Below the pieces are notes generated by a model. That model ran no database searches. It was not told where the DNA came from and was given only the letters and a program-made list of their open reading frames with translations. The position numbers were made by a program, and so were the translations under genes. Of a stretch of 64,000 nt of DNA, positions 9,191 through 34,721 are shown piece by piece. Position 1 is the stretch's first letter; each line of letters opens with the position of its first letter. This stretch comes from Ornithodoros turicata. Lineage: Eukaryota; Arthropoda; Arachnida; Ixodida; Argasidae. The stretch spans positions 232,086,258-232,150,257 of the forward strand of contig NC_088201.1 of assembly GCF_037126465.1 (NCBI RefSeq). The letters are read 5' to 3'.

Positions 9191-9192
9191 AT

Positions 9193-13995: not shown

Positions 13996-14376
13996 GGTAC
14001 AGAAGGAAAAGCCGCCAGGAGGACATTGGAGACGCGGGACATTGGAGTCAGCTAGCGGGGCAGTAAAACGGGCACAGCTAGAGTAATATTCTGTTGTTAT
14101 GGGCTGTTATGTTGAAGGGAGAAAACGGCTATTCCTTATTTCAAGGTATTTAAGCGGTTAGTATTACGTGTTGAAGGTTCATGCGAATTGTGGGTCAACA
14201 GCCCGGAGGGAAGACAGGGTCCATACAGGCTTTTACGGCCGGAGTGAAGCAGGACGGAGGACCACAATGAAACGAGGGGCCCCTGCTTGCATATGTACAT
14301 TGGATATAGTGAAGGATGTAACGCATCTTCCATGGAACACTACCTCGTGGAAGCAACGTGCGTGGAAACAAATTCC
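13996..14376. repeat. Macro-repeat copy D, truncated
   Basis: Same start and same ~2.7-kb internal deletion as copy C (C and D share the junction), but ends abruptly in another (CCTAA)n array just after GTGGAAACAAATTCC. Confidence 0.8.
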
Positions 14377-14483
14377 TAACCTAACCTAACCTAACCTAAC
14401 CTAACCTAACCTAAACCTTAACCTAACCTAACCTAACCTAAACCTAACCTAACCTAACCCAACCCAACCCAACCTAACCTTAA
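14377..14483. repeat. Telomere-like array T4, left part of a split array
   Basis: CCTAA repeats ending in TTAA at 14480-14483, which is one copy of the target duplication of the inserted element. The array resumes at 32733 with the other TTAA, so T4 and T5 were once one array. Confidence 0.85.
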
Positions 14484-17797: not shown

Positions 17798-17803
17798 TAC
17801 GCC
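17798..17803. repeat. Polinton target-site duplication, left
   Basis: TACGCC, identical to 32015-32020. In the host hAT element this hexamer would occur once, as ...CTGCC-TACGCC-ACTG. Confidence 0.95.
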
Positions 17804-18455
17804 AGTAGTGATAGATATTGCATTTGGTAACAATGGGCCGCTCAGGTTACATGCGACACGCACACGCACGATAAGATATATCAGAAAACAATGGAAATCA
17901 TGTATCGATAGTGTGAACAATGGGTTCCCAGGTTTCAATAACATGCGCCGCCAGGATAAGGTAACGGTTAACTCGGGTAAACAATGGGAACTCACGTGTC
18001 GATAGTGTTTGATGGGCACCTGGATGCACGTTTAATGACATTTAATAACACGCAATGACATGTAATAACACGCAAATGACATGTAATAACACGCAAGTGA
18101 CATGTAATAACACACAAATGACATTTAATAACAGGCAATAACATCTGATGACATTTAATAGTATTTTTCCGATCGGGTTGACGTCAGTCCGTCACCTAGT
18201 TTGGTTGCCGCGTCAGAGCGCCAGGTAGTTTCGGTTCCCACCAAGCGCCCTCTAGTTTTCAAGCTTTGGCCGTCTGTAGTTTCGGTTTCGGTTTTAAATG
18301 AATGGACGCCAAGCTTGGTTGCTCCACGTGTAGTTCTGGTTTCAGTTTCGAATTCCTAGATGTTGCCAGATGCCCTCTGGTTTCAAGCTATTGACCGACT
18401 GTAATTTCGGTTTCAAACCGCAGCACGCTAGTTTCGCTGTGACAACGTCAACGCA
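17804..18455. repeat. Polinton left terminal inverted repeat (652 bp)
   Basis: Reads AGTAGTGATAGATATTGC inward and matches the inverse of 31363-32014 along its whole length by eye. It ends within the first copy of a 157-bp tandem duplication. It contains a run of ~22-25-bp units at 18035-18161 and several TAGTTTCGGTTT-like motifs. Confidence 0.93.
18035..18161. repeat. Short direct repeats inside the left TIR
   Basis: Five to six units of the type AATGACATGTAATAACACGC, with small changes. The inverse array is at 31657-31783. Direct repeats near a terminus could bind a terminal protein or integrase, but this is inference. Confidence 0.8.
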
Positions 18456-18715
18456 TTTTCTGGCGATATAAATTAAGCGTACGCGTAGAAATTTCATCAG
18501 AAAAAGAAAAAAAAAACATGGTTGACCAGTTCTATGTGAACCTGCTCTCAAATGCATCTAATTTCGGTTTCAAACCGCAGCACGCTAGTTTCGCTGTGAC
18601 AACGTCAACGCATTTTCTGGCGATATAAATTAAGCGTACGCGTAGAAATTTCATCAGAAAAAGAAAAAAAAAACATGGTTGACCAGTTCTATGTGAACCT
18701 GCTCTCAAATGCATC
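18402..18715 (+). repeat. 157-bp tandem duplication of promoter, leader and first codons
   Basis: 18402-18558 is repeated exactly, as far as can be read, at 18559-18715. Each copy has the same TATA-like box (TATAAAT at 18467 and 18624), an A-rich leader and an ATG followed by the first 14 codons. In the first copy the frame then runs into a stop after about 23 more codons. Only the second copy leads into the full gene at 18675. Confidence 0.9.
18624..18630 (+). promoter_or_regulatory. TATA-like box for the left gene set
   Basis: TATAAAT, 45 bp before the ATG at 18675, with a duplicate at 18467-18473. The position fits a promoter for the capsid genes. Confidence 0.45.
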
Positions 18716-19727
18716 TTTGGATGTGTTTCCCGACAACACAATGAGCAAGTTCCGAGTAAAGCTAGCCCATCCACAGACGTTGGAGGGTAGGTGGGAGGCC
18801 GCTTTAACAGAAATCAACATCCCTTTTGCGATTAAAAATGTAACTGACACAGTCAATAGTATATCGGAAACGACATTCCTTGGTTCTACGATTGAAGCAA
18901 CAGAAAAGGTCAAGTTCAACGCTAATGAAAACATTCTCTTGTCTTTGAGACAATTTTTAGCAAAACATTTGCAGCATAAGACAAGAATTATACGTGGTAG
19001 CGGTCATTATGAGATACAACTTCCTCTGAACTACGGTTTGGAAATTAGCGCAACTCTTGCCGCTAAGCTTGGCATGGCTGAAAAGATAATCGGCTGTGGA
19101 GAGTTGGACAGAGGGTCACCCGTGAAGCTACTCAAATACCAGGTGGATACGGAAGAAACGATTAACATAGTTACCTATCGTTCACGAACAGTAAAGTATG
19201 AAGTTCCAGAAGGCTACTACGAATCGGGGAAGGACCTCGTTAATTCCATTAACCATGCCTATCGAACAAAACTTCATTTGTCGCAAGATGCTCGTCTCCT
19301 CGTATGTAACCCATACAACGGAATTTGTCACCTGGAACGCATGAACGATGGCTATGTGACCTTTCATCCTTATTTGGCTTTGATGTTGGGCTTCGGAAAG
19401 AGGACAACTTTCTCAAGTTATGCAGTCGCCGAACGAGACGTTTGTCTATTCCCTGCTCAAAACTATATTTTCATATACTGCGATGTCATCGAGAACGAAT
19501 TTGTGGGTGACGTGACAGCACCACTTCTTCGATCGATACCATTCAGGGTCCAGGGTAGGAATGATGTGATGTCTTATTTATTCACAAACCTGTACTATAA
19601 ATATGTATCTGCGAAGGAATTGACAACCATTCAAATCGAGTTGGCAAACGAGATAGGTGATTTCATTCCATTCATTTCTGGCTCTGGACGTGTCGGGTTG
19701 ACGATCCACCTACGTAAATGTATATAA
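18675..19727 (+). CDS. Probable minor capsid (penton-like) protein
   Basis: 350 residues, first gene of the left set and just before the core-like and major capsid genes. The N-terminus contains LDVFPDNTMSKFRVKLAHP followed by GRWEAALTEINIPF, a block I recall from proteins encoded beside the capsid gene in arthropod Polintons. Penton or minor capsid function is inferred from length, position and the predominance of beta-type sequence. No motif proves the jelly-roll fold. The ATG lies behind an A-rich leader. An exact copy of the first 14 codons lies 157 bp upstream. The C-terminus overlaps the next start by 10 nt. Confidence 0.6.
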   Translation: MVDQFYVNLLSNASLDVFPDNTMSKFRVKLAHPQTLEGRWEAALTEINIPFAIKNVTDTVNSISETTFLGSTIEATEKVKFNANENILLSLRQFLAKHLQHKTRIIRGSGHYEIQLPLNYGLEISATLAAKLGMAEKIIGCGELDRGSPVKLLKYQVDTEETINIVTYRSRTVKYEVPEGYYESGKDLVNSINHAYRTKLHLSQDARLLVCNPYNGICHLERMNDGYVTFHPYLALMLGFGKRTTFSSYAVAERDVCLFPAQNYIFIYCDVIENEFVGDVTAPLLRSIPFRVQGRNDVMSYLFTNLYYKYVSAKELTTIQIELANEIGDFIPFISGSGRVGLTIHLRKCI

Positions 19728-20098
19728 CAAACCCACCATGTTGGATAGCACATTTTGGTGCAGGAAAGCGAGAGCATCTACCACACTATACTGCTCCCGA
19801 GCTTTATCAGATTGGAGGAGGCATATTTGGTGACGTATTGAGGGGTTTCTTGCCCATACTGACCAAGAAGGTAGCGCCATACGTTGGGAGAAAGCTCCTT
19901 GATACTGGAAGACATATAGCCGAGGAAGTCCAGCAAGGAGCATCATTTCGAGAAGCCGTCAAGAAAGGAGTAGACCGCACAGTGCATAAAACTTGTGACG
20001 AGTTACTTCAGAGACTCACAGGGAAAGGAAGAAAACGCAAGGCCGTTAAAAAAGCTCGACCTGCGGAGAAGCGGAGGAAATCTGACTTCTTTACTTGA
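19718..20098 (+). CDS. Small basic virion-core-like protein
   Basis: 126 residues. A glycine-rich, hydrophobic/amphipathic segment (YQIGGGIFGDVLRGFLPILT) occupies roughly residues 31-50, followed by a charged helix and a strongly basic tail (GKGRKRKAVKKARPAEKRRK). This plan, a possible membrane-active segment plus a DNA-binding tail, recalls adenovirus pVI/pX-type core proteins, for which adintovirus and Polinton counterparts have been proposed. The start overlaps the end of the upstream gene by 10 nt and the stop lies 12 nt before the next ATG, placing it in the capsid cluster. Function is inferred. Confidence 0.55.
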   Translation: MYITNPPCWIAHFGAGKREHLPHYTAPELYQIGGGIFGDVLRGFLPILTKKVAPYVGRKLLDTGRHIAEEVQQGASFREAVKKGVDRTVHKTCDELLQRLTGKGRKRKAVKKARPAEKRRKSDFFT

Positions 20099-20110
20099 CA
20101 GAAAAAAAAA

Positions 20111-21418
20111 ATGTCTATTGCAGTAGTGCATAAAGATTCCTGTCTGTGTACTACAAACCAGCTGGAACTCTTCTCTCTTCCACCTACAAATTTTGCTTTG
20201 GAGAAGTCTGAATACGTCGAGTTTTTCCCAGTATCTGCTCCGACATCAAGCGGAGTGATCGCGTACAATGTTCCGGGACTCGGTGGGGGCTTCTTTGATC
20301 TTCAATCCAGCTTTTTGCATATTCAGTGCAAGATCATTCGAAAGAATGGAGATCCAGCGGTAACTACAACAAGCACTTCAACAACACCTGATGCAGTCAT
20401 ACCTGTCCAAGCGTTTGGTTCATCATTGTTTCAACACGTACATATCTACCTGAATTCAACCTTGGTTTCGAGTTTCGAACATTATGGCTACCGTTCCTAC
20501 TTGGACATCATTACGAATGCCAACAATGTAACTCAGACACACACCCTTTCAGCAATGTTATACGAGCCAGACCCTTTAGGCACGAGTGAGGTATATGCTC
20601 CCACATCTGATTCAAAAGGAGTTTTCGCTCGTTACAAGCGAACCAAAGGATCGGCACTGTGTGACATGTACAGCCCAATCTTCAGCGACATATGTCAACA
20701 ACAGAAGCTCATTCTTAACGGAACCGACATTCGAGTTGTGCTACGTCAAGCGTCGGATGATTTTCGTCTCTTACAAGCTGATGGTGCAACAGAAAAGCAC
20801 ACTGTGGAATTTTCACGTATCGTGCTCTATCTCCGACGTGTTCAGTTATCGCCGAGTATACTTGTTGGTATAGAACGAAGACTTCAAACAACACCTGCAG
20901 TATACCTTCTCCGAGGACTGGAAATTAAGTACAGAACCATCGCCCCTAACCAATCTCAGGTGATATTTGACGACTTGTACAGCGAGCGAGTTCCCTCCAA
21001 GTTAACAGTATTGATGGTCAGGAGCGATGCCTACCAAGGTAGCAGACCACGAAACCCATTCAAGCTTGAGAACTTCAAACTAAAACGAGCACTACTGGAC
21101 GTTGGTGGACAACAGTACACGGATGAGTTCGACTTCCAACGAGACATCTATTCCAAAGCCTATATACACCTGCTTCACAAACTAAAACGCAAGGATATAC
21201 CAATAGCTCCAGCTGCGTACGCAAAAGAGACATTTATGCTTTATTACCATCTGACTCCAGATGCAGAAGTGAATGCTCTTTGTCCTGTTGTTCAAGCCAA
21301 CGTTCGTCTGACCCTAACGTTTGCTGCCAATCTAACAGAAGCAGTTACGGTGTTGTTTGTATCCGAAACACCACGTGTGCTAGAAATCAACAAAGACAGA
21401 CGAGTGAAATTTGTCTGA
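20111..21418 (+). CDS. Major capsid protein (double jelly-roll type, Polinton PY)
   Basis: 435 residues. The N-terminus has the pattern typical of the Polinton capsid family annotated as F54H12.2-like in animal genomes: LELFSLPPTNFALEKSEYVE, then a Gly-rich turn and FDLQSSFLHIQCKI near residues 62-80. HVHIYLNSTLVSS near residue 110 is a further family block. Length fits the double jelly-roll proteins that form virion capsomers. The ATG directly follows an uninterrupted A-run (20101-20110). The gene lies between the core-like protein and the protease, the usual virion cluster. No internal stop or frameshift is visible. Confidence 0.8.
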   Translation: MSIAVVHKDSCLCTTNQLELFSLPPTNFALEKSEYVEFFPVSAPTSSGVIAYNVPGLGGGFFDLQSSFLHIQCKIIRKNGDPAVTTTSTSTTPDAVIPVQAFGSSLFQHVHIYLNSTLVSSFEHYGYRSYLDIITNANNVTQTHTLSAMLYEPDPLGTSEVYAPTSDSKGVFARYKRTKGSALCDMYSPIFSDICQQQKLILNGTDIRVVLRQASDDFRLLQADGATEKHTVEFSRIVLYLRRVQLSPSILVGIERRLQTTPAVYLLRGLEIKYRTIAPNQSQVIFDDLYSERVPSKLTVLMVRSDAYQGSRPRNPFKLENFKLKRALLDVGGQQYTDEFDFQRDIYSKAYIHLLHKLKRKDIPIAPAAYAKETFMLYYHLTPDAEVNALCPVVQANVRLTLTFAANLTEAVTVLFVSETPRVLEINKDRRVKFV

Positions 21419-21427
21419 AAAATAAAC

Positions 21428-21913
21428 ATGGAGGAGTGGCAGTTCTATGCAGCATTCAGTAGACACTACTGCACCAGAGAACTGTTTCGGGGAACCTTTG
21501 CATGCAATGAAATCGCAAGACAGGAAGCCATACCCAGGATTTATGTGATTAACACAGCTCCAAGGAGCAGTAACGGTGAACACTGGACCATGACTTATGT
21601 TTCCGGTGACAATGTAGTTACGTATTTTGATAGTTACGGCATTCAGCCCGTCTACAAAGAATTCTACCAATTCATTCATCCTACCAGGTCATTTTACTAT
21701 AACAAGAAAAGACTTCAGGGCTATGGATCAGCTACATGTGGCCTCTACTGCCTGTATGTAGGCAGCATGCTCGCTTGTGGATTCTCGCTCCGAGAGTGCA
21801 CTCAGAGATTTTCGTCAACGAACTTCACACTGAACGACAAGCTGGTACCCGTCCTTGTACGGAAGCAATTCCCAAGAAAGACAGACAACATGTCATGTTG
21901 CAGTGTACTTTGA
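21428..21913 (+). CDS. Adenain-like cysteine protease (maturation protease)
   Basis: 161 residues. The catalytic set of adenovirus-type C5 proteases is visible in order: His52 in GEHWTM, Asp68 in YFDSYG, and Cys104 in ATCGLYCLY. In viruses of this lineage the enzyme cleaves capsid and core precursors during maturation. The gene starts 9 nt after the capsid stop. It is followed by AATAAA at 21917-21922, only 4 nt past the stop, and converges on the polymerase gene. It may share ULP/SENP ancestry, but position and length favour the viral-type protease. Confidence 0.88.
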   Translation: MEEWQFYAAFSRHYCTRELFRGTFACNEIARQEAIPRIYVINTAPRSSNGEHWTMTYVSGDNVVTYFDSYGIQPVYKEFYQFIHPTRSFYYNKKRLQGYGSATCGLYCLYVGSMLACGFSLRECTQRFSSTNFTLNDKLVPVLVRKQFPRKTDNMSCCSVL

Positions 21914-21916
21914 CAC

Positions 21917-21934
21917 AATAAAATTGTATTTATT
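21917..21934. terminator. Back-to-back poly(A) signals between convergent genes
   Basis: AATAAA on the plus strand at 21917-21922, and AATAAA on the minus strand (TTTATT) at 21929-21934. These would end the rightward capsid-protease transcripts and the leftward polymerase transcript within 20 bp. Confidence 0.6.
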
Positions 21935-22028
21935 TCCATGTCGTTACAGGCACAATCTTATATATATATATAAAAAACAGCATTACAACAACAACAGCCA
22001 GGTAGGGCAACATATGCATAAAAACTGT

Positions 22029-25000
22029 CTACATCTTTCCATTGGATGCGTACCCAAAGGGCAACGTGTGGATACCATCCTCACAAATGAAACGCTTTGT
22101 GTCTAGGGGATTTAAAGCTACTTTCGTAACACATACACTTTTATTTATATTTTCCTTGCACACAATGAGGTTCTGACAAACTTTGTACACTTCACCAAGC
22201 TTAAGAGAGTCTATGTACATTGAATAATGCAACTTCTGGGCTTCACATTGTTTCACCCCCTTAGCACGATTGTATCGTCTTTTACTATGGAGGTCTAGTG
22301 CATAGAGCTTTGGTTTCAGGCAACAGAACCCTAGGATGTGGTCGTGGGGCATTTCGTTCTTAAATTTTCCTAGCACCATCTTGTTTTTCGTAGAATACAT
22401 CGAGTCATCACAAGAATGACCAGATGTATCAAGGTGGGTATCGGCGAGCTCCGCAAGGGCCTTCTCATCGCTCAGCATCACGATATAAGAATCTGTGTCC
22501 ATATACAAGAGCCTTGTGTCCGGGGCTACCCGAAGCAAGTTGTTATAATAAAAGTCATACATCATGACTTTAGACAGCTCGAGAATAGTGAACCCCAGGT
22601 ACAGAGGCTGTCGCATACGGACTATCGATTGAGCGAACTGAAACAAGACTACGTTAGAGCTTAGAGCCCTGAATTGTTTGAGGTTCGGTTTACGCAAGAA
22701 TCTCAACACTTGCTCCTCGGAAGTTGCTAAGCGACAGTCGACGAACTTTCGTACATTCATACATGTTTTCCCATATACGGAGTTAATTAAACACTTGTAC
22801 AGGTTACGTTCGAAGGTATTGGTTGCCTGCTTGCGTAGTTCATGATGGAAGTCAACATAGGATCGCAGGAATGGTTTTTGTTTGAACCTGAGCACCCGGT
22901 GAATTTTCTCGAGCCGAAGACCCAACTGTAGGTACAACCTTAGACTGCGATAATGAAGAAAATACTTCTTCTTGTCAAGCAGTGTAAGGAGTAATTTCGG
23001 TTCTATATCATGCTGTGGGAGGTTAAATTTTTTCATCAGGTCTTTCTGATAATCCGAAAGCAACTCATACGGGACGCTCATTTTTTCTGGCGCGAGCGCT
23101 AAATCTTTATGTCGTTCGTGGAGCTCTTGTACGTAGGCCAGGTCTACCTCTAAAAAATAACCAACGTCTGCATAATCTGCAACAAGGGTTACATCTAAAC
23201 CTGCAACCTCTTCGGGTGACAGCCATTCAAAGTCTCCGAATGGGAGTGGTTCACGCATCACTGTGCCATAGAGTCCATTTATGTCCATGTAATGAATTAT
23301 GGTCTTTGGTTTTTCGGGATCGTACTGATCTGTCCCTGGGACATTTGCAGTGGCCATTCGCGTTGAACACTGGGTCATACCACCACGCAGGCCCCGTTCA
23401 ATTAACAGATAGGCATCGGGATCGTGGATTAAATCCAGATTAATCCGGCTCATTTTTAGTGCGCAAGACATGCTTAGTCCCGGGAGTGACACGAAATGAA
23501 GTGGTTCAATTTTGTGCGTCTCCAACGCCCATATTCGGAAGTTTTGAAACACGTCTGCCAGAAGCAATGCGTCCGTCAGAAGGTACAAATCCGAGTACTC
23601 GCCCAGGCTCTTCAGTTGAAATTTTTCAAACACATTTTGCGCATGGCGGTAATCTTCCTCGCTCACTTCTGATCCGTTCAGTTGGTTAAAGAACTGGTCA
23701 CGTGATGGCAAACGTTGGTCGTAACGTTCAAAAGAGGTAACGTAGTTATAACAGAAAACCCCTTTACGTACAACCAACCTGAAGTAGTCCTCCTCTGCGA
23801 AAAACTGACGCAGACACCTGAAGTTAGATTCACCTTTGTCACATAGATTTTTCGTCAGTGTGTCGAGACTAGCATTGAGGAAGCTTAACGAGTCTATGAA
23901 GCGGAACACACCAATGTCTATAGCCTTAAACTTTTGACAACTGGAGGCTATCACTCTGATGTCTGTCTTCCGAAGCAGGTGCAGATGAGCTACTATGAAT
24001 CCGAGGTCATAATTGGCATTATGTGCAATGATGGGCACCTTCCGTGGTATCCACAGTTTCAGATTACATCCCTGACACAATGATTGGCGAAATTCTCCAC
24101 TTACGTGATCATGGTCTCGCACTTTCTGCTTCTTAGTGAATGGTTCTTTACAGATGTTACAGTGAGTGGCTTCAGAATGTTCGAGTTCGTCTCCTGGGGT
24201 CATTTGCAAGGGCACAGTCTCGTGCAACATCGCATACAGCTCATCATGCAAATTACGCAATAGTTCCATGAAAACGGAAACGCAGTCTGCACCACGGTAA
24301 ATATGTTTCTTCAAGACATACGAATCGCACGAGCGTATGACGAGGAGACAGAAGGATGAAGGGATGTGTTCCTCGTAGACATTCCCGCCTCCCGAACACG
24401 GTGATAGTACACTCTCAAAGTCGTATACACAGTAGAAGGGAACTTCCGACATCAAATGCTCTCCGGCAAACGACAGTGTCTCACCCTTCTTTGGAAAAAT
24501 AGTCTTGGACACTTTTTGTTGTTTACACATTAGTAGATGATCGGCGAGTACACCCGGGGTGGTGAAACCCATCGTACACCGTTTGCAGTGAAAATAACCA
24601 GGTGGTGTGAACAAAGCATTGAAATTAGTAATGAGTACAAAATGGAAGTCAATCAGCAGTAGGTCGACATGCTTCTTGCACTGGTCGTCAACAACCTTAA
24701 TCGGGTAAACATATTTTTCATCTTTGTCATAACCGTACACGTTAATGCTCACATCGTTCTGCTTCTCAAACATTTCTACATCTTTCGGGAACACTACAGG
24801 AAACGTCTCTGGAAATACATATTGAGACAGGTATGACCTGTAGGATGAAGCTCTGCGTCTGTAAGAACCCTTTGCAGGATGTAGACCGGCAAGTACGCAA
24901 AATGCGAAACACATGTTCTGTTCACTATCCTCGTGAAGGTCGACACTCAGAAGACACCGACACTTTTTTTTCAATTCGTTTGGCAATTCAAAGTCGGTAC

Positions 25001-25520
25001 AACCAATGAGCTGTGGTGCGAGACGACCGACATGAAGAATGCAGGCGTGAATTCGAAATAAGAAAAATCCCGACCCTTGCATTTCAAGCTTTTCTAAATT
25101 GTTGGTGACTTCAGTGCCTACTTCAATGACAGCACGTTCTACGTCTCGTTCGGACCACAGCGTATGCACACTCGAAGGAATAAATTGAGTGACAAATATG
25201 ATCTCATCCTCAGGCGTATGTCGACCGAGTTCCGCCTTCAGCAAAACATAAAAGCGTAACGGAAATCCGAAATGTCGAAGTACACCGGCAAGGTAGCGTC
25301 CGTTTTCATGAAAGAATGTGCTGACATCCTGCCCGTCGTCGTCTCTGTCATGTAGATGAAGCTCATAGCGGTTGGTATAGTTGCGGAGCGTACAGAGTGT
25401 CTCGCAAAATGGGATACAGGGTGTTGCAAGGTTATGAACGTTAGCCAGATGAACTTGAAGTCCCAGCGCTGTTGTGTAGTGCTGCCGATCGGTCGGAGGA
25501 CAAAGGTGGCATGTCACCAT
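22029..25520 (-). CDS. Protein-primed family B DNA polymerase (PolB)
   Basis: 1163 residues. The N-terminus holds a C2H2-like finger (CHLC...HLANVH) and more Cys/His pairs (CKRCTMGF near 310; CNICKEPF...CQGCNLKL near 450-485, an endonuclease-VII-like zinc motif seen in these polymerases). The 3'-5' exonuclease motifs are YDFES (about 365), HNANYDLG (about 498) and YSDLYLLTD (about 650). The polymerase motifs are A, MDINGLYG (about 743, the DxxSLYP equivalent); B, INSVYGK (about 910); and C, YMDTDS (about 1004). It would copy the linear element from its ends using a terminal protein primer. An A-rich leader precedes the ATG. All key residues are present and no stop interrupts the frame. Confidence 0.95.
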   Translation of the reverse strand: MVTCHLCPPTDRQHYTTALGLQVHLANVHNLATPCIPFCETLCTLRNYTNRYELHLHDRDDDGQDVSTFFHENGRYLAGVLRHFGFPLRFYVLLKAELGRHTPEDEIIFVTQFIPSSVHTLWSERDVERAVIEVGTEVTNNLEKLEMQGSGFFLFRIHACILHVGRLAPQLIGCTDFELPNELKKKCRCLLSVDLHEDSEQNMCFAFCVLAGLHPAKGSYRRRASSYRSYLSQYVFPETFPVVFPKDVEMFEKQNDVSINVYGYDKDEKYVYPIKVVDDQCKKHVDLLLIDFHFVLITNFNALFTPPGYFHCKRCTMGFTTPGVLADHLLMCKQQKVSKTIFPKKGETLSFAGEHLMSEVPFYCVYDFESVLSPCSGGGNVYEEHIPSSFCLLVIRSCDSYVLKKHIYRGADCVSVFMELLRNLHDELYAMLHETVPLQMTPGDELEHSEATHCNICKEPFTKKQKVRDHDHVSGEFRQSLCQGCNLKLWIPRKVPIIAHNANYDLGFIVAHLHLLRKTDIRVIASSCQKFKAIDIGVFRFIDSLSFLNASLDTLTKNLCDKGESNFRCLRQFFAEEDYFRLVVRKGVFCYNYVTSFERYDQRLPSRDQFFNQLNGSEVSEEDYRHAQNVFEKFQLKSLGEYSDLYLLTDALLLADVFQNFRIWALETHKIEPLHFVSLPGLSMSCALKMSRINLDLIHDPDAYLLIERGLRGGMTQCSTRMATANVPGTDQYDPEKPKTIIHYMDINGLYGTVMREPLPFGDFEWLSPEEVAGLDVTLVADYADVGYFLEVDLAYVQELHERHKDLALAPEKMSVPYELLSDYQKDLMKKFNLPQHDIEPKLLLTLLDKKKYFLHYRSLRLYLQLGLRLEKIHRVLRFKQKPFLRSYVDFHHELRKQATNTFERNLYKCLINSVYGKTCMNVRKFVDCRLATSEEQVLRFLRKPNLKQFRALSSNVVLFQFAQSIVRMRQPLYLGFTILELSKVMMYDFYYNNLLRVAPDTRLLYMDTDSYIVMLSDEKALAELADTHLDTSGHSCDDSMYSTKNKMVLGKFKNEMPHDHILGFCCLKPKLYALDLHSKRRYNRAKGVKQCEAQKLHYSMYIDSLKLGEVYKVCQNLIVCKENINKSVCVTKVALNPLDTKRFICEDGIHTLPFGYASNGKM

Positions 25521-25534
25521 TTCTTTTTATTTTT

Positions 25535-25861
25535 TTACTCGGATTGACCGAACACGATGTCTGGCGAAAGAAGACGTTTCCCCTCTTTTCCAACTCGCTC
25601 TTTCTTCTCCATCCAGAGTCCGCTCGTGTTCCTCATGTCTTCGATGTCTTGAGTGCTTAGTTTATGAAACCGAGCTGGAAGGAACACCTTTACGTGCTCG
25701 TGATCCTTCATAATTTCTACGTAGACCGCCTCGCCATACCTCGTTTCAATTTTGTTAACATCAACCACATCATACTTGATGTTTTTAGGAATTGTCGCCA
25801 TTTTTTGAAACTCTCCACATTTCTTTAACTTGTCAAGTTTATGCAAGATCGACGAAGACAT
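25535..25861 (-). CDS. Probable OB-fold single-stranded DNA-binding protein
   Basis: About 108 residues from the ATG at 25861. An upstream in-frame extension runs through a probable 5'-UTR splice acceptor, so this start is preferred. The pattern DVNKIETRYGEAVYVEIM...VKVFLPARF is the kind of beta-strand sequence found in small OB-fold proteins encoded next to PolB in arthropod Polintons. It sits 14 nt before the PolB start on the same strand, suggesting a shared early replication transcript. Single-stranded DNA binding is inferred from context and pattern. Confidence 0.5.
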   Translation of the reverse strand: MSSSILHKLDKLKKCGEFQKMATIPKNIKYDVVDVNKIETRYGEAVYVEIMKDHEHVKVFLPARFHKLSTQDIEDMRNTSGLWMEKKERVGKEGKRLLSPDIVFGQSE

Positions 25862-25923
25862 GATGCTTACTTGTACACTGATGCAATGATGACGACGATG
25901 ATCCTTCGGACACGTTGGACCGA

Positions 25924-25986
25924 CTGAAAACAAAAGGAGCACATGTTAGAACACTGCAAAATATTTCATCATTCTGAACACCATAC
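25924..25986 (-). other. Probable 63-nt intron in the replication-gene leader
   Basis: On the minus strand GGAG|GTATGG at 25987/25986 and a strong acceptor CTCCTTTTGTTTTCAG ending at 25924 enclose 63 nt just upstream of the OB-fold gene. It would remove upstream sequence from the leftward mRNA. Confidence 0.45.
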
Positions 25987-26202
25987 CTCCTCAGAAGGAG
26001 GTTCGAGAGTGAAGGAGCTGAGCGTCAGACAGTTCTTATATAAGAAGTTGCCAGCATGGCAACCTTGAGGAGTCTTCTTTTTTTTTTTTACATCGTCAAC
26101 TCTGCAGTCGGACCTACCTTTGCAGTTTGCTTTTTTTTCCTGCAGTTTGCAAGCACGGACTTGTTTATCTAACGAAACGTATCTTGACCAGACTTCATTC
26201 CC
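25987..26202. promoter_or_regulatory. Divergent promoter region between replication and packaging genes
   Basis: This lies between the leftward OB-fold/PolB pair and the rightward ATPase cluster. It contains TTATATAAG at 26036-26044, the inverted repeat GTTGCC-5 nt-GGCAAC at 26047-26063, and T-runs at 26077-26090. No protein is encoded. Confidence 0.45.
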
Positions 26203-26835
26203 TTGCACGAAATGACAGTGATAGCACCTTTTAGGTTTGTGACGCCTGCCTCGGTGTCAATTTCAGGGGCTAGTCAAAGTGGGAAATCCACCTTCGTGGC
26301 ACGACTAATTAAACACAGAGCTGTCCTCTTTGACAAACCGTTCAAGCAAATATGGTATATCTATCTTTATAAGCAGCCGGTATTCGATACTCTTCCTGAA
26401 GTAAATTTCAGTCAAGACATCCCTGCAGATCCGGAGAATTATAGCCACTCATTATTTATATTTGACGACTGTTTAGCCGACCGGCAAAGACTCAAAGAAA
26501 TCTGCAAATTTTATATCGCTGGGTGTCACCACCTGTCAATCACGGCTGTGTTCATCTCGCAATACCTGTTCGTCAACGACTCTTTGTATCGCACAATACA
26601 ATTCAATAGCACGGCTCTCGTTTTATTTCGTTCACCACGCACTACAGACCAGCTGCGTATGCTGTCCAGGCAGATTTTCGGGCGAAATGATTTGTTGCCC
26701 ACGATATATAAAGATGCCTGTCAGAAACCATACTCATACTTAGTTATCGACTTGTCTCAACAGAGCAACGATCACTATAAGGTGTGGACCAACATTTTCC
26801 CGGATGATCACAGACAGATCGTATACAGGTCATGA
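26203..26835 (+). CDS. FtsK/HerA-type genome-packaging ATPase
   Basis: 210 residues (a second Met three codons later is an alternative start). Walker A is SGASQSGKST at about residues 21-30 and Walker B is SLFIFDDCL at about 83-91, with a downstream SQYLF/NSTALVLFRSPR segment as in the A32-like packaging ATPases of Polintons, virophages and adenovirus-related elements. It would drive DNA into the capsid. It opens the right-hand gene cluster and its stop overlaps the next ATG as ATGA. Confidence 0.9.
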   Translation: MHEMTVIAPFRFVTPASVSISGASQSGKSTFVARLIKHRAVLFDKPFKQIWYIYLYKQPVFDTLPEVNFSQDIPADPENYSHSLFIFDDCLADRQRLKEICKFYIAGCHHLSITAVFISQYLFVNDSLYRTIQFNSTALVLFRSPRTTDQLRMLSRQIFGRNDLLPTIYKDACQKPYSYLVIDLSQQSNDHYKVWTNIFPDDHRQIVYRS

Positions 26836-27188
26836 AAAGGCTTAACAAACACATTCGTTTCCTTCGTATGATCGCTGAAGCAAAGACAGGGGAAGATCGT
26901 TACAACCTGATTCAACATGCCAGCAGGGAACAGCTACGAACAATCAGGGAGATTTGTATGAACCTCTGCAAAGGAAACATCGACGTACCGGCGAAAGTTA
27001 AAAAGCAATTGCAGCCTTTTGCAACACCCATTAGGACACTGGCTTCCAGGCAAGACCGTGCAGATGTGAAGAAAATTAAACGGATTCTTCATCAGTCCGG
27101 CGGGTTTTTGCAATTTTTGTTGCCCCCCTTGTTAGGTCTCGTTTCAAGTTTAGCGGGCAAAAGCATCGCAAAAGCAATCGGCATTTAA
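26832..27188 (+). CDS. Small basic protein with C-terminal hydrophobic segment
   Basis: 118 residues. The first ~90 are basic and helical-looking (IREICMNLCKGNIDVPAKVK, then KKIKRIL). The last ~28 form a hydrophobic, glycine-containing segment (FLQFLLPPLLGLVSSLAGK). It starts inside the ATPase stop codon (ATGA) and ends 3 nt before the next gene. A basic body with a membrane-active tail would suit a virion core or membrane-lytic protein, but the family is not named. Confidence 0.7.
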   Translation: MKRLNKHIRFLRMIAEAKTGEDRYNLIQHASREQLRTIREICMNLCKGNIDVPAKVKKQLQPFATPIRTLASRQDRADVKKIKRILHQSGGFLQFLLPPLLGLVSSLAGKSIAKAIGI

Positions 27189-27191
27189 ATA

Positions 27192-27803
27192 ATGCAGAAA
27201 TACGAGCTTGTTCCCTATCGGGAAAGCACTATTCCGTCGATATTGAATAAACAGGAGCCTGATGATATCAAAGCCAAGGAGATCATCCAGTACTTGCACA
27301 AGCTATTGCATCCTCCCGCGAACACATTAAGACAGCCTAGTGCAGCAGGTGAGGAGACAAATCATGTGGCATCGACAAGAGAGCAGACACAGATTCAAGC
27401 GGACGAGGAGGAAGATGCCATCGTTAATTTTATGAGCAGCGGCTACAAGATGAGAGCAAGCCCATTACTGCGTTTACTAAAACCCGTGCTCGGCTGGAAT
27501 AGTAAAACGTTTGAGCTCATTGTCAATGGTGAACAAATACCAAATACCAACGTTGTAGACCTTGTTTATTATTTGGTCACAAGAGCGCGAAATGTGTGGC
27601 GACCCGCGTATCTCGAGAGGATCCTACCACTATTGGTCAAGCTAAATATACCGACACTTATCGTACATCCATCTCGACTTGAAAAGGAGAATGCAGAGCC
27701 ATCAGCCGGTAGTCCTACGTTCACACCTGAGACACCTCGTCGACGCATTTCTCCGGTTATCACAAGAGCGGCTAAGAGACTTCGAGAATGGAACCGGTAT
27801 TGA
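27192..27803 (+). CDS. Conserved Polinton protein of unknown function (203 aa)
   Basis: Begins MQKYELVPYRES, a start I recall from proteins preceding the integrase in arthropod Polintons. The N-terminus and C-terminus are polar and probably disordered (Glu-rich at about 70; RRRISPVITRAAKRL at the end). The middle (VLGWNSKTFELIVNGEQIPNTN, then LVYYLVTRAR, about 95-140) looks folded. It starts 3 nt after the previous gene and overlaps the next by 16 nt in another frame. No enzymatic motif is seen. Confidence 0.7.
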   Translation: MQKYELVPYRESTIPSILNKQEPDDIKAKEIIQYLHKLLHPPANTLRQPSAAGEETNHVASTREQTQIQADEEEDAIVNFMSSGYKMRASPLLRLLKPVLGWNSKTFELIVNGEQIPNTNVVDLVYYLVTRARNVWRPAYLERILPLLVKLNIPTLIVHPSRLEKENAEPSAGSPTFTPETPRRRISPVITRAAKRLREWNRY

Positions 27804-28111
27804 GCACGTTGGAAACGCAACAGGAACACTGTGGTTACCTTCGGGACGAAAACATTCTGGCGCATTTTCCCGCACGACACAGGAAGAAGGCCCTCGCCAT
27901 TCTGCAGATGCTAAAGACCGTATTTGCGATAGATGAAGAGGGAAGGATTATCTGTCATTCTCGCGTTGTTCCAAGTAGTTCCGTCATCGAGCTTATAAAA
28001 TACGAACTGCACAATCGATCGCCCTCTTGGTACAAAGGTGACGTGGCAGCCGTTATAAATGCCTACTTGTCATTCGACGGACTTCGTGTTCGTGGAAGAA
28101 AATTGTGCTAA
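27788..28111 (+). CDS. Small Polinton protein upstream of integrase (107 aa)
   Basis: Starts MEPVLSTLETQQ inside the preceding gene (16-nt overlap) and stops with TAATG, sharing a base with the integrase start. The sequence (HRKKALAILQMLKTVFAIDEEG, then VIELIKYELHN and VINAYLSFDGL) predicts a small helical domain, possibly winged-helix-like and DNA-binding. This is a guess from pattern only. Confidence 0.65.
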   Translation: MEPVLSTLETQQEHCGYLRDENILAHFPARHRKKALAILQMLKTVFAIDEEGRIICHSRVVPSSSVIELIKYELHNRSPSWYKGDVAAVINAYLSFDGLRVRGRKLC

Positions 28112-29139
28112 TGGCTGCTTACGTGGACGTATACCATCCTGGTGCTCTAGGTGGTGTTCAACGACTCGCACGAGCGATCGGTGAAAAGCCGGCGAAGGTT
28201 GCCAAGTTCCTGGAAACCAGTGATGTGTACTCTCTCTTCAGAGAACTTAAGCGACCACGTCAGTTCCGGAAGACCATCGTTTTGGGTGCGAAGGATATAT
28301 TCCAAATAGATTTGAAAGACCTTCAGAAACTGTCGAGATACAACAAGGGTTTTCGCTATCTTTTGTTTTGTATCGACGCATTTTCTCGTATGCTTGCTGT
28401 AGTGCCTGTGCAGAATAAACGAGCAGCGGAAATTATACGCGGACTGAGACTCGCTTTTAGACGTATTGGGACTCCGAGACTGATTCATTCAGACAGAGGT
28501 ACAGAGTTCACCAATAAGTCAGTCGGAGCATTTTTAAAATCAAAAGGGATATCTCTCTTCCACACTAATTCAAATACGAAAGCAAGTATTGCAGAACGAT
28601 CTATTCGAAGTCTTATGACGCCACTTTATCGTGCTTTTGAATATCAGGGACATAAATCGTACTTGAAAATTTTACAGCCTCTGGTCAAAGCATATAATCA
28701 TCGTGTTCATAGAACTCTGTCGGCACGACCTGTGGATGTCAACAAAGAAAATGAACATTTATTTAGACAAAAGCTCTATCCTACTCCGAGCAAACCCCCA
28801 GAGAAGCCACGTTTTCGCGTTGGCCAGCTTGTCAGAATAGCAAAGTCTAGACACCAGTTAGTCAAAAGTTATCTTGGTTCGTTTACGCGTGAAATTTTTG
28901 TGGTGAGAGCAGTCAAGATTGGTTACCCGAATACCTATCTCTTACGTGACCAGCAGGAAGAACCTATTGAAGGTCAATTTTATGCAAGCGAATTAACACG
29001 TGTGCAGCCTGGAAAGGGCCACCGCATTATAAAAAGACGCGTTCGGAATGGAAAGGTGCAGTACCTGTTGCAACCTTCTGGAAGTCGTAGAAGGACTTGG
29101 GTTCCGGAGAACTACCTGCCACCACCGACGACGAAATGA
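28111..29139 (+). CDS. Polinton DDE integrase with chromodomain-like tail
   Basis: 342 residues from the ATG at 28111, which overlaps the upstream stop (TAATG). The retroviral-type catalytic triad is visible: Asp67 in FQIDLKDL, Asp128 in IHSDRGTEF and Glu162 in ASIAERSIRS, with 33 residues between the last two. The C-terminal region (about 300-342: IIKRRVRNGKVQYLL, then TWVPENYLP) has the aromatic pattern of a chromodomain, as in many animal Polinton integrases. It would insert the element, giving the 6-bp duplication seen here. The frame is intact with all catalytic residues present. Confidence 0.93.
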   Translation: MAAYVDVYHPGALGGVQRLARAIGEKPAKVAKFLETSDVYSLFRELKRPRQFRKTIVLGAKDIFQIDLKDLQKLSRYNKGFRYLLFCIDAFSRMLAVVPVQNKRAAEIIRGLRLAFRRIGTPRLIHSDRGTEFTNKSVGAFLKSKGISLFHTNSNTKASIAERSIRSLMTPLYRAFEYQGHKSYLKILQPLVKAYNHRVHRTLSARPVDVNKENEHLFRQKLYPTPSKPPEKPRFRVGQLVRIAKSRHQLVKSYLGSFTREIFVVRAVKIGYPNTYLLRDQQEEPIEGQFYASELTRVQPGKGHRIIKRRVRNGKVQYLLQPSGSRRRTWVPENYLPPPTTK

Positions 29140-29690
29140 CTGGCGATCACTGGTCCGATGTCGAACAGCCAGCCAACGCTGGCGATTCCTGGTCCCAATC
29201 GGGTGATGATGTGTGCGGCATGCGGGACGTTACCCAGGATCATCAACTCCAAGGAAAATGTCGCCGTCCTCATACCTGTTGGAATGATGTGTTAGAATGC
29301 GGTTCATCGAAGTCAACGGACGACACAGTGCTCGTCGCAGCATTTAAGATAACCAGAGACATTTTCCTGTTCCAGTCCCTGCCTCTGAACCTTCCCGCGA
29401 AAAAGACTGTGTGGGAGTCTTCAAAAACAATGTATGCCAGGGTGCACAGGAAGTGTGAGCACCTATCCGACCACCCGTTCGACCTGGTGTCCGAATGGGG
29501 AAAACAGATGAGCTCAATATTCAGCTATTACGGTGATCGTGACGTCGACGTAATGCAACTGGTGGCCGAAAGTCTATGTATCATGTACTACGCAATGAAG
29601 ACTGGCTACCATTACCTGGCTGTGTACATAAACGACATGACAATTGACCTGTTGCAAAATAGGTTGTCACCCAAAGACGCTTACCAATAA
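29136..29690 (+). CDS. Accessory protein of unknown function (184 aa)
   Basis: The ATG overlaps the integrase stop as ATGA, which decides this start. The first ~60 residues are acidic and low in complexity (DDEMTGDHWSDVEQ is partly upstream). The rest is helical, with FDLVSEWGKQMSSIFSYYGD followed by LVAESLCIMYYAMKTGYHYL. The WG plus hydrophobic pattern is reminiscent of the BH1 region of Bcl-2-like proteins, which some adintoviruses encode, but the NWGR signature is not met and BH2 is not clear. AATAAA at 29686-29691 overlaps the stop. Confidence 0.6.
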   Translation: MTGDHWSDVEQPANAGDSWSQSGDDVCGMRDVTQDHQLQGKCRRPHTCWNDVLECGSSKSTDDTVLVAAFKITRDIFLFQSLPLNLPAKKTVWESSKTMYARVHRKCEHLSDHPFDLVSEWGKQMSSIFSYYGDRDVDVMQLVAESLCIMYYAMKTGYHYLAVYINDMTIDLLQNRLSPKDAYQ

Positions 29691-29735
29691 ATATTGAAAT
29701 CCATGACGAGTTGTCTCATTTTACTGTAGGTCGTC

Positions 29736-30227
29736 ATGGTAAATAGATGTCCGGAGATGTTCTGCTACACCTTGTCCTTTCTGAGTGCTGTTTCCCTGTT
29801 CGTTTTCGTAGCTACAACAGAATTTACAAAACCAACACTGAAACAGGGAAAATGCACTACCGTGACTCAGATTGACCATAACATCTACGTCCACCGATGT
29901 CCAGCTGCAGTAACTGCCGTACGCCTTTGGCTCAGCAATGGTCATCCGACGAGATACGGAGTAAATCTGTCGCAAAATGATACACGTCAACTATGGCATT
30001 GCTTGAAAGAAGCAAATGTCGCGCACAATTATTATAACTTCGAGTGCTCGAAGCTATGTGAAATAAGCTTCGAACCCAGGCAAGTAATAGAACGATGTCC
30101 CGGCAATGTGTACAATATTGCAAGACTCATTGGGAATGGAAAGCACAGCGGTTACGGTATCACTCTTTCGAAATCGGCTACCATGTCTCTGCTGTCTCAT
30201 CTGAGCGAAACAATAAAAAGAATTTAA
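29736..30227 (+). CDS. Accessory protein with two copies of a ~50-aa domain
   Basis: 163 residues. An N-terminal hydrophobic stretch (YTLSFLSAVSLFVFVATT, about residues 11-28) could be a signal peptide or membrane anchor. Two repeats follow: VHRCPAAVTAVRLW...YGVNLSQ...LWHCL and IERCPGNVYNIARL...YGITLSK...LLSHL. Within them, HPTRYGVNLS followed by W-x2-L recalls the PC4/p15 single-stranded DNA-binding fold (PTKKGISL...W-x2-L). Cysteines in both repeats and the hydrophobic leader argue instead for a secreted protein. Function is open. AATAAA occurs at 30210. Confidence 0.55.
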   Translation: MVNRCPEMFCYTLSFLSAVSLFVFVATTEFTKPTLKQGKCTTVTQIDHNIYVHRCPAAVTAVRLWLSNGHPTRYGVNLSQNDTRQLWHCLKEANVAHNYYNFECSKLCEISFEPRQVIERCPGNVYNIARLIGNGKHSGYGITLSKSATMSLLSHLSETIKRI

Positions 30228-31362
30228 AACAAATACATGCCCGCATTTCATTTAGCTATAAAATACACTGTAACACAAGAAATGGTTTGAAATACTCACA
30301 TCACTTGGCTCTTACGTGGCACACTCACTGCTGGAAGCTCGTACGTGGCAGACAGCGTATACCACCAGTCGAAAATTCATCTTGCGAGGGCGATAACGGT
30401 TTCTTTTTTGTGTGTGTGTGATTGGTGTTCCCAAAGAGCATTTGGAAAAAGCCAGACGGGTGTTTCGCGGTTGTGTTATCATACCAAAAGAAGAAGAAAA
30501 AAGAGCGTGTCGGCAAGAGGTATCGCATTTCACATGCTGCTCCTGCGAAAGGAGAAGCTGTCCACGATGCATTCACGTGATCCTTCCTTCCCTTGAAATA
30601 AAACAAAAATGAAGGGTCTTATAAGCTAGCTGTCGACGACTGAGACCGATCAGACCTTCATCGACGACGCAACTTTGAAAGGATGTGAGTATACCTCTTG
30701 TCTTTATGCCTTTTTTTTGTTATTTTTATTTCGAAACGATCACAGCTGGTAACCGCAATACGTAGTCATGCAATGCTTCTCGATTCGTTGTATGCTGTTG
30801 TCGCAATGCGCAACACAAGTTTGGAAATGTGTGTGTATAGAACACCTCTATTTTATTGTGATTGTTGTCACTGGGTTATTTACTTCCAAACGTCGTACTC
30901 CTATGCAAATGCATGACACAGTAACAGAGACATATCGGAAAGTGGAAAACGTTAACCGATTCTTTGAGAATGCTGCTTGTTGTTGTTGCGTGACACCTGA
31001 TCGAGATTTGAGTCATCCTAGACTTTGTCCTGATTGAGAAGAGCATTCACAGGATGTTTCGTTTTCCCTTTGTTTTTGCAGATTGCTTCTGTACAAGGAT
31101 GAAGTCAAGCAAGACTCTGGTAATTTGTAACATATCTTTCGTTAGTTGAATAAAAGAGTAGTAAAATAATGTGCTGAAATAAAAAAGGAATATATACAGT
31201 GTTGTCTGGTCTCTGATATACATCATTATTTGAGTGTACTTATCAAATGGGGAGAAAAATCATGCTGTGACGCGGCATTTAGTTTTTTTGTCAAATGAAA
31301 CCGTAAGTACAGACGGTCAAAAGCTTGAAACTAGAGGGACATCTGGTAACCATTCAAAAACC
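30228..31362 (+). other. Right-end region with a possible spliced small transcript
   Basis: TTATAAG at 30619 could start a transcript whose first exon ends at a GTGAGT donor (intron from 30685). A strong acceptor, TTTGTTTTTGCAG, ends at 31081. The second exon has an ATG at 31099 followed by 16 codons and a stop that overlaps AATAAA (31149-31154). A 66-codon frame at 30412-30612 with CCSCERRSCPRC lacks an ATG. The inner 80 bp (31283-31362) is a diverged copy of the TAGTTTC/GGTTTGAAACC motif of the TIR. Confidence 0.35.
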
Positions 31363-32014
31363 TGCGTTGACGTTGTCACAGCGAAACTAGCGTGCTGCGG
31401 TTTGAAACCGAAATTACAGTCGGTCAATAGCTTGAAACCAGAGGGCATCTGGCAACACCTAGGAATTCGAAACTGAAACCAGAACTACACGTGGAGCAAC
31501 CAAGCTTGGCGTCCATTCATTTAAAACCGAAACCGAAACTACAGACGGCCAAAGCTTGAAAACTAGAGGGCGCTTGGTGGGAACCGAAACTACCTGGCGC
31601 TCTGACGCGGCAACCAAACTAGGTGACGGACTGACGTCAACCCGATCGGAAAAATACTATTAAATGTCATCAGATGTTATTGCCTGTTATTAAATGTCAT
31701 TTGTGTGTTATTACATGTCACTTGCGTGTTATTACATGTCATTTGCGTGTTATTACATGTCATTGCGTGTTATTAAATGTCATTAAACGTGCATCCAGGT
31801 GCCCATCAAACACTATCGACACGTGAGTTCCCATTGTTTACCCGAGTTAACCGTTACCTTATCCTGGCGGCGCATGTTATTGAAACCTGGGAACCCATTG
31901 TTCACACTATCGATACATGATTTCCATTGTTTTCTGATATATCTTATCGTGCGTGTGCGTGTCGCATGTAACCTGAGCGGCCCATTGTTACCAAATGCAA
32001 TATCTATCACTACT
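31363..32014. repeat. Polinton right terminal inverted repeat (652 bp)
   Basis: Inverse of 17804-18455 with equal length, ending ...CTATCACTACT at 32014. It contains the inverse of the short direct-repeat array at 31657-31783. Confidence 0.93.
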
Positions 32015-32020
32015 TACGCC
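32015..32020. repeat. Polinton target-site duplication, right
   Basis: TACGCC, identical to 17798-17803, followed by ACTG, the last four bases of the interrupted hAT element. Confidence 0.95.
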
Positions 32021-32732: not shown

Positions 32733-33090
32733 TTAACCTAACCTAACCTAACCTAACCTAACCTAACCTAACCTAGCCTAAACCTAACTTAACCTAATCC
32801 TAACCTAACCTAACCTAAACCTAACCTTAAGCTAACCCTAACTCTAACCTAACCCTAACCTAAGCCTAACCTAAGCCTAACCTAAGCCTAACCTAAGCCT
32901 AACCTAACCCTAACCTAAACCTAACCTAACCTAAACCTAACCTAACCTAATCTAAACCTAACCTAACCTAACCTAACCTAAACCTAACCCAAACCTAACC
33001 TAACCTAACGGTACAGAAGGAAAAACCTAACCCTAACCTAACCCTGACCAAACCTAACCCTAACCTAACCTAACCCTAAACCTAACCTAA
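32733..33090. repeat. Telomere-like (CCTAA)n array T5, right part of the split array
   Basis: Starts with the TTAA duplicate at 32733-32736, continues as CCTAA repeats with the same irregular variant order as 13680-13920, and ends at the GGTACAGAAGG block start. Confidence 0.9.
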
Positions 33091-33851
33091 TGGTACAGAA
33101 GGAAAAGCCGCCAGGAGGACATTGAAGACGCTGGACATTGGAGTCAGCTAGCGGGGCAGTAAAACGGGCACAGCTAGAGTAATATTCGGTTGTTATGGGC
33201 TGTTATGTTGAAGGGAGAAAACGGCTAATTCCGTATTACAAGGTATTTAAGCGGTTAGTATTACGTGTTGAAGGTTCATGCGAATTGTGGGTCAACAGCC
33301 CGGAGGGAAGACAGGGTCCATACAGGCTTTTACGGCCGGAGTGAACGGCGGCTTTGTTAGAGTGTGGAGGGGATTACGTGAATGAAGTGATCTTTGCTCC
33401 AGACCGGTTACAGAAATGGGAGGTTCACGAACAAGGGGACCAAACGGGACAGCAGGCAGGAATCGATGAGCGTTCCGAAAGACAAGGAGGTTAGTGATTA
33501 CGTGGGGAAAATTCAAGGTCGAGCAAAGCGTTTTTTTTAAAGATTAGGTTTAAAAGATAAGAAAAATAAGGCAAGCCAGCAAAGGAGTTTTTGTAAAGAT
33601 AAGGTTTAAAAGATAAGGGCTCTGAATTCCTGGTGAGACGTCAGGGTGGTGCATCAGAATTGCTCTCAGACATCAGCGTGTAGGGTCTTCCCATTGACCG
33701 TCTCAATCATGTGTCCGGTTCGTGGATTTAAGTGAGTTGTCACTGGACCCTTGTTCTGTCGTCTGTTGCTCTTCGCTTTGGGGCACCTCCGCCTCTCATT
33801 TCCAATTCCTGATCAAAGGCCATATACGCCGTATCCGTGTAAATACTGGAA

Positions 33852-34007
33852 CAGGGGCGGATTTAAGGTTGTGTCATGGGGGCAGTCTGAGGGAAATTTC
33901 GTGCTTTGCGGCAGAGCATCATCCAGGATATAGGGTTTTTACATAGGGAACACAACTGTATGGGGGCGGTCACCCCCCCTCGCCCCTCTCCCTTTAATCC
34001 GCTCCTG
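33852..34007. mobile_element. hAT-type MITE, copy in block B
   Basis: Same element and same 8-bp duplication (TACTGGAA at 33844-33851 and 34008-34015) as at 9988-10145, so it was inserted before the block was duplicated. Confidence 0.8.
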
Positions 34008-34466
34008 TACTGGAACCTATACGAACGCAAGCATATAGCTGCTGATTTCGTGCCACTCTTTTCTCGCAGTTGCGAAAACTGGAAGGCAACTTATCCCACC
34101 CCGATCCACGGCAGCGCACCACATCAAGAATGTGTTTCAAATAAACGTACACTATAGCAGTGCAGCGTCTGTTGTCATCTTATTTGAATTTAACCTTTTA
34201 TTCCCGGGAAGCACTTGGAATGTGCACTCTTAAAATTTGAACACTGGTGTAACTGCGATGAAATCAGGGTGCCTGAATGTCTCCACACACCCTTAAATAC
34301 ATTTTAACGTTAAACAATAAAGTAACTGTGCATAACGGGTGCTTCGAGGGTGTTGTGGGTGTAAAGCACTTGCTTTTGCCTGGCGTCTAACGTGGTGTTT
34401 AGCCTAGTGTTTTTTAGTGTCTTCCCTGGCCAGCCTCGGGTACTCCATCTCTCTCGCAACACTACT

Positions 34467-34721
34467 ACACTACACTATCTAGGGTGTGGCAGATGTGGAC
34501 AGGTGCCATGGGCGCCAGGTGAACAGGGGCGCCATTATACGGTCGGGTGTGAATGTGCCAGGTCGGGCACTCAACTTGGCACATTCATAAATGATCTAAA
34601 GCACCCGCCATTAGGGAGGTTGTAGTGTGAAACCTAGTGCGGATCTCACGAAAACGCATCCCCAAGGACATCATGTTAACCATGTTGCCATGGGCGCAGG
34701 TAGCTCTAGATACGCCACTGC
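34467..34721. mobile_element. Insertion present only in block B (~255 bp)
   Basis: Block A reads straight through at 10600 (ACACTACTCGGCAC). In B this is split by ~255 bp ending ...CTCTAGATACGCCACTG. The ends (CACTACACTATCTAG and inward CAGTGGCGTATCTAG) are weakly inverted, suggesting a degenerate hAT-like MITE. The target duplication is blurred. Confidence 0.45.

What the first reader, a model, noticed from the sequence alone, without database searches (positions are those of the whole stretch)
17804..32014. Complete, apparently intact Polinton with readable TIRs and TSD
Seen: 652-bp inverted repeats of equal length, AG...CT ends, perfect TACGCC duplication, and uninterrupted PolB, integrase, ATPase, protease and capsid frames with catalytic residues in place. 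Known: these define Mavericks/Polintons and their adintovirus relatives. Inferred: recent insertion, perhaps still able to move or make particles.
Basis: partly seen in the sequence, partly recalled or inferred. Interest (0 to 1): 0.85.

Follow-up and report, generated by a model that had tools for sequence, protein, structure and literature searches.

The report
Intact Polinton (virus-like transposon) in tick
This is a complete, young-looking copy of a virus-like jumping element (a Polinton, also called Maverick) in what is almost certainly the genome of a soft tick; such elements are well known, but a copy this complete would be useful for testing whether they can still move or make particles.

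Summary
A 14,211-bp element (17804-32014) has 652-bp terminal inverted repeats that differ at 1 of 652 positions (not zero), ends that fit a published Maverick end motif, and a perfect 6-bp duplication, TACGCC. Open frames include a protein-primed-type PolB, an RVE integrase, a P-loop ATPase, an adenain-like protease, a probable penton, and a capsid protein modelled as a double jelly roll. The PolB is 99% identical (1152/1164) to a gene model of the soft tick Ornithodoros turicata, so the host is that species or a very near one. It is a new member of a known kind, Polinton/Maverick; membership in Adintoviridae (now Eupolintoviridae) is not shown. 'Recent insertion' is supported. 'Still able to move or make particles' is untested; of 12 PolB positions that differ from the nearest relative, about eight look derived in this copy, one being a one-residue deletion.

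The parts
17798..17803 (.). target-site duplication TACGCC, left copy
   Evidence: read directly
17804..18455 (+). left terminal inverted repeat, 652 bp, begins AGTAGT; holds five 21-bp tandem repeats (18034-18138)
18402..18558 (+). first copy of a perfect 157-bp tandem duplication; its first 54 bp lie in the TIR; holds a TATA-like box (18467) and an ATG (18518) opening a 36-codon frame
18559..18715 (+). second copy of the 157-bp duplication; holds a TATA-like box (18624) and the start codon of the long frame (18675)
18675..19727 (+). putative penton (minor capsid), 350 aa
   Evidence: position one gene upstream of the MCP, as described for Polinton PX (PMC4028283 passages); no profile or fold support
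19718..20098 (+). 126-aa open frame, overlaps the previous one by 10 nt
   Evidence: no family
20111..21418 (+). major capsid protein, 435 aa, predicted double jelly roll
21428..21913 (+). adenain-like cysteine protease, 161 aa
   Evidence: PF00770 E=0.0025, below cut-off; best PDB match adenain 1avp E=0.073; H52/D68/Q97/C104
21917..21922 (+). AATAAA just after the protease stop
21929..21934 (-). AATAAA on the - strand beyond the PolB end
22029..25520 (-). family B DNA polymerase of protein-primed type, 1163 aa, with EndoVII-like zinc stretch (residues 446-488) and conserved C204/H293
25535..25861 (-). 108-aa open frame 14 nt upstream of PolB, same strand; function unknown
26036..26043 (.). 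palindromic TTATATAA in the divergent intergenic region, candidate two-way TATA box
   Evidence: inference
26212..26835 (+). P-loop ATPase, putative packaging ATPase, 207 aa
26832..27188 (+). 118-aa frame, ATGA overlap with the ATPase
27192..27803 (+). 203-aa frame, similar to the next frame
   Evidence: score 57, 0 of 500 shuffles reach it; the E<=1 BLASTP self-comparison did not list the pair
27788..28111 (+). 107-aa frame, possible paralogue of the previous one
28111..29139 (+). RVE integrase, 342 aa from ATG
   Evidence: rve 9.3e-14
29136..29690 (+). 184-aa frame from ATG, ATGA overlap with the integrase; stop lies in AATAAA (29686)
29736..30227 (+). 163-aa orphan frame with hydrophobic N-terminus (by eye) and an internally duplicated 41-residue unit
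   Evidence: 0 of 500 shuffles; no homologue at E<=0.1
31363..32014 (-). right terminal inverted repeat, ends ACTACT
32015..32020 (.). target-site duplication TACGCC, right copy

Best explanation
A full-length autonomous-type Polinton/Maverick provirus integrated in a soft-tick genome (Ornithodoros turicata or a very near species). Shown: ends, TSD, gene content, modelled capsid fold, close tick relatives. Inferred from the family: the integrase inserted a linear double-stranded copy and made the 6-bp duplication; PolB copies the linear DNA by protein priming from its ends; ATPase, protease, penton and MCP would package it into an icosahedral particle. Also inferred, more weakly: three compact transcription units (a + unit from the left TIR edge, and two units diverging from about 26036). 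The insertion is young; whether this copy still works is open.
Against: ATPase and protease matches are below Pfam cut-offs; the penton has no profile or fold support. The MCP model is middling (pLDDT 66.6, pTM 0.68). The window PolB has more derived changes than its nearest relative. No viral-contig relative for MCP, integrase or penton. Codon use did not separate coding from non-coding frames. TATA-like and AATAAA motifs also occur at many other places in the element, so the unit map is weak.
Confidence: 0.92

Rival explanations
1. A recently dead copy: the ends and frames are intact only because too little time has passed, but missense changes and a one-residue deletion have already weakened PolB, and other copies in the genome are the active ones.
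For: Of 12 differing positions between window and P0013, the window looks derived at 192, 490, 602, 603, the deletion after 603, 808, 861 and 1121 (603, 861 and 1121 less surely, because relatives vary there); P0013 at 396 and 468; 10 and 910 are unresolved. At 808 the window has A where 23 of 24 other rows have P. Branch lengths 0.0064 against 0.0024.
Against: Counts are small. At columns where at least 85% of the other rows agree, the window departs at 5 and P0013 at 4, five other near rows at 7 to 21, so there is little excess at conserved columns. P0013 is one gene model. No frame is broken.
Confidence: 0.4
2. A present-day exogenous tick virus of the adintovirus kind that happened to integrate, rather than a resident transposon lineage.
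For: Full set of capsid-type genes; near-identical TIRs.
Against: Four further O. turicata gene models on other contigs are 70-74% identical in PolB, and the six Ornithodoros-type rows group together, which fits long residence. Seven Ixodes rows group with one unnamed row, but the I. hexagonus row is unplaced. No viral-contig relative for MCP, integrase or penton.
Confidence: 0.12
3. TIR near-identity reflects gene conversion or assembly collapse rather than youth.
For: None found here; reads were not available, so it is untested.
Against: The arms keep one difference and end at the same inner point, where the left continues into the 157-bp duplication and the right into other sequence.
Confidence: 0.06

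Closest known systems
Polinton/Maverick elements of animals (vertebrate 'intact' Mavericks; PMC8097293 passages)
   Same: TIRs, (AGT)2//(ACT)2 ends, 6-bp TSD, unspliced-looking PolB, integrase, ATPase, protease and capsid frames, size inside 12.7-24.6 kb
   Different: tick host; gene order differs from the two-module vertebrate map; 14.2 kb is below the reported mean of 16.9 kb
Adintoviridae, renamed Eupolintoviridae (PMC12451622 passages; PMC11071296 passages)
   Same: PolB plus RVE integrase plus hexon-type capsid; the MCP model also matches predicted proteins labelled MELD virus sp. and Adintovirus sp.
   Different: hexon not matched to a named adintovirus hexon by sequence; chromodomain match weak
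Tick adintoviral endogenous elements (PMC10675110 passages)
   Same: tick genomes; integrase-bearing elements
   Different: that survey of nine hard-tick genomes reported 453 integrase-derived loci, all in Ixodes; here a complete element in what looks like a soft tick
Ornithodoros turicata LOC135378445 (P0013)
   Same: PolB 1152/1164 identical
   Different: 11 substitutions and one residue more than the window; its surroundings could not be read

Membership tests
Polinton/Maverick | terminal inverted repeats with AG...CT type ends | tested here: met
   652 bp, 1 mismatch, AGTAGT...ACTACT
Polinton/Maverick | 6-bp target-site duplication | tested here: met
   TACGCC both sides
Polinton/Maverick | protein-primed family B polymerase | tested here: met
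   PF03175 6.9e-16; 1542 homologues, 120 listed; the terminal-protein domain itself was not tested
Polinton/Maverick | RVE integrase | tested here: met
   rve 9.3e-14, D/D/E present
Polinton/Maverick | FtsK-like packaging ATPase | tested here: inconclusive
   Walker-type motifs present; AAA_14 5.3e-4 and FtsK_SpoIIIE 0.071, both below cut-off
Polinton/Maverick | adenovirus-like cysteine protease | tested here: inconclusive
   PF00770 0.0025 below cut-off; adenain best in PDB at 0.073; catalytic-type residues in order (roles recalled)
[quoted passage not shown]
Polinton/Maverick | single jelly-roll penton near the MCP | tested here: inconclusive
   a 350-aa frame lies one gene upstream; no Pfam support; fold not tested
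Adintoviridae/Eupolintoviridae | OTU-like domain in the PolB N-terminus | tested here: inconclusive
   C204 and H293 are invariant in the 25-row alignment; the OTU assignment is recalled, fold not predicted
Adintoviridae/Eupolintoviridae | hexon recognisable by BLASTp to adintovirus hexons | tested here: inconclusive
   11 protein hits, none named adintovirus; the fold match to adintovirus or MELD labelled models is structural only, 8-12% identity
Adintoviridae/Eupolintoviridae | integrase with C-terminal chromodomain | tested here: inconclusive
   PF00385 E=0.4 on the C-terminal 60 aa
Active, particle-forming element | transcripts, free linear DNA, particles, polymorphic insertion | not testable with these tools
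   no reads, no population data; genome search did not complete

The most novel reading that the evidence does not exclude
A live endogenous DNA virus lineage of soft ticks: this or a sister copy still makes particles, expresses its genes from three operon-like units in which neighbouring frames touch or overlap (two ATGA joints), and carries lineage-specific accessory genes, among them a two-unit orphan protein with a possible signal sequence.
Probability: 0.2. Interest if true: 0.65.

Novelty: new member of a known kind. Interest (0 to 1): 0.38.

Why it matters
The 2021 vertebrate survey states that Maverick particles have not been observed (PMC8097293, abstract seen). A complete, little-diverged copy with a 99% relative of its polymerase in a tick species makes movement, expression and particle formation checkable in a real animal. 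If the host call is right, it puts a complete copy in a soft tick. The element itself is ordinary for its class.

Tried and rejected
Host as prokaryote or protist: rejected by tick homologues and AACCT arrays, the TTAGG-type telomere repeat recalled for arthropods. Exact TIR identity: rejected, 1 mismatch. Codon-usage test of small frames: uninformative; 14 other frames used as controls scored -0.012 to 0.092, core genes 0.036 to 0.104, the seven small frames 0.036 to 0.115. p163 as a known family: no Pfam match above cut-off, no homologue at E<=0.1 among 7 candidates; single-sequence model pLDDT 39.1, not used further. A resemblance to PC4-type ssDNA-binding domains is only my impression. p163 as a chance frame: 2 of 300 shuffles of 29690-31362 reach 163 codons. 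PolB and MCP against PDB by sequence: no match. PHROGs, 10 of the 13 frames given: PolB and EndoVII matches for PolB, weak ones for the 25535 frame (best 0.0033, unknown function), none for the other eight. Rfam and tRNA: none. Viral contigs, 5 scans: MCP, integrase, MCP alignment and penton found no relative; the PolB alignment found two distant contigs that share only PolB convincingly. Joined flanks matched only themselves in the window, so no empty site was found there.

Full report
What is there. The element spans 17804-32014 (14,211 bp). Its arms are 652 bp and differ at one position. The duplication TACGCC flanks it exactly. The ends AGTAGT...ACTACT fit one of two end motifs used for vertebrate Mavericks, together with 6-bp TSDs (PMC8097293, passages seen). 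The same passages call an element 'intact' if it has TIRs, a 6-bp TSD and eight conserved intronless frames (seven in one frog), and report 134 such elements in 17 species. This element meets the end and TSD parts and has frames for the named core genes; the identity of the other two (PW, PZ) was not tested.

Host and relatives. The PolB search gave 1542 proteins, 120 listed. The best is an O. turicata model at 99%; four other listed O. turicata models lie at 70-74%, and the listed named Ixodes rows at 41-54%. P0013's database cluster has 26 member sequences, but whether they are separate copies could not be learned, and P0013 might in principle be the same locus in another individual. A tree of 30 rows that I chose from the best hits sets apart 16 rows, 14 of them tick-named or the window, with 100/100 support; the six Ornithodoros-type rows group at 100/100; seven Ixodes rows group at 100/100, while the I. 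hexagonus row and unnamed P0019 stay unplaced within the 16 (root at midpoint, for drawing only). This fits long residence in ticks but is not a test of host jumps.

Age and function. One difference in 652 (0.15%, 95% interval 0.004-0.85%) supports a young insertion; no rate was at hand to turn this into years. Of 12 differing PolB positions between window and P0013 (11 substitutions, 1 deletion), eight look derived in the window, two in P0013, two unresolved. At columns where at least 85% of the other rows agree, the window departs at five and P0013 at four, five other near rows at 7-21, so the excess at conserved columns is slight. The copy is open and complete but not proved functional.

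(a) A perfect 157-bp tandem duplication, 18402-18558 and 18559-18715, begins 54 bp inside the left TIR and copies a TATA-like box and the start of the penton frame; the first ATG opens only 36 codons. The right arm holds only the 54-bp part, once, so the duplication likely arose after, or outside, whatever keeps the arms equal. (b) Nine neighbouring same-strand pairs are spaced -10, +12, +9, +14, -4, +3, -16, -1 and -4 nt (from coordinates). Two are ATGA joints (26832-26835, 29136-29139). AATAAA lies at or near the ends of the three clusters (21917 +, 21929 -, 29686 +) and a palindromic TTATATAA in the divergent region. Against a simple unit map: AATAAA occurs 21 times in the element on both strands, including between MCP and protease (21421) and just upstream of PolB (25526, - strand), and the TATA-like patterns searched occur 20 times. 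Operon-like expression by reinitiation or alternative splicing is an inference. (c) Frame 29736-30227 carries a duplicated 41-residue unit (score 65; shuffles' maximum 43; 0 of 500). Frames 27192-27803 and 27788-28111 may be related (score 57; maximum 50; 0 of 500), though BLASTP at E<=1 did not list the pair.

Known or new. Endogenous adintoviral loci in ticks are in print: 453, all integrase-derived and all in Ixodes (PMC10675110 passages). I saw no title on a complete Polinton from Ornithodoros in the listings for Polinton+tick, Maverick+Ornithodoros, Ornithodoros+adintovir, the Polinton/arthropod/adintovirus/Ixodes set, or Maverick/tick genome/Polinton since 2022 (the last showed 10 of 59), in an open-licence library only. 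Adintoviridae has been renamed Eupolintoviridae (PMC12451622 passages). I file this as a Polinton/Maverick; I do not file it as a proven eupolintovirid.

Noticed in passing
window 1-2425: Tandem array of a 170-bp satellite unit (10.0 and 2.9 copies in two blocks by TRF; 14 copies of a 124-base stretch by the repeat finder).
   Followed up: no
window 12210-12598, 13454-13995, 14375-14480, 32734-33090: Interstitial arrays of AACCT (TTAGG-type repeat), in or beside a repeat family shared by about 9122-14319 and 32987-36613, most blocks 88-98% alike; the Polinton lies between these two copies.
   Followed up: partly
window 41211-47104, - strand: Two large frames (1336 and 635 aa) with a NACHT-type NTPase and many ankyrin repeats; they overlap by 25 bases in different frames, which suggests an intron or a frame change.
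   Followed up: no
window 52593-54679: Large imperfect palindrome with arms of 483 bp (97%) and 279 bp (94%) plus an inner 125-bp pair (96%); possibly a fold-back element.
   Followed up: no
L001 and L002: Two IMG/VR contigs (17.4 and 15.1 kb) encode PolB 32% and 30% identical to the window's; their other genes show no convincing match.
   Followed up: partly
P0007 (O. turicata LOC135374019): Gene model joins a reverse-transcriptase part with the C-terminal half of a Polinton MCP; probably an annotation chimera or a damaged copy.
   Followed up: no
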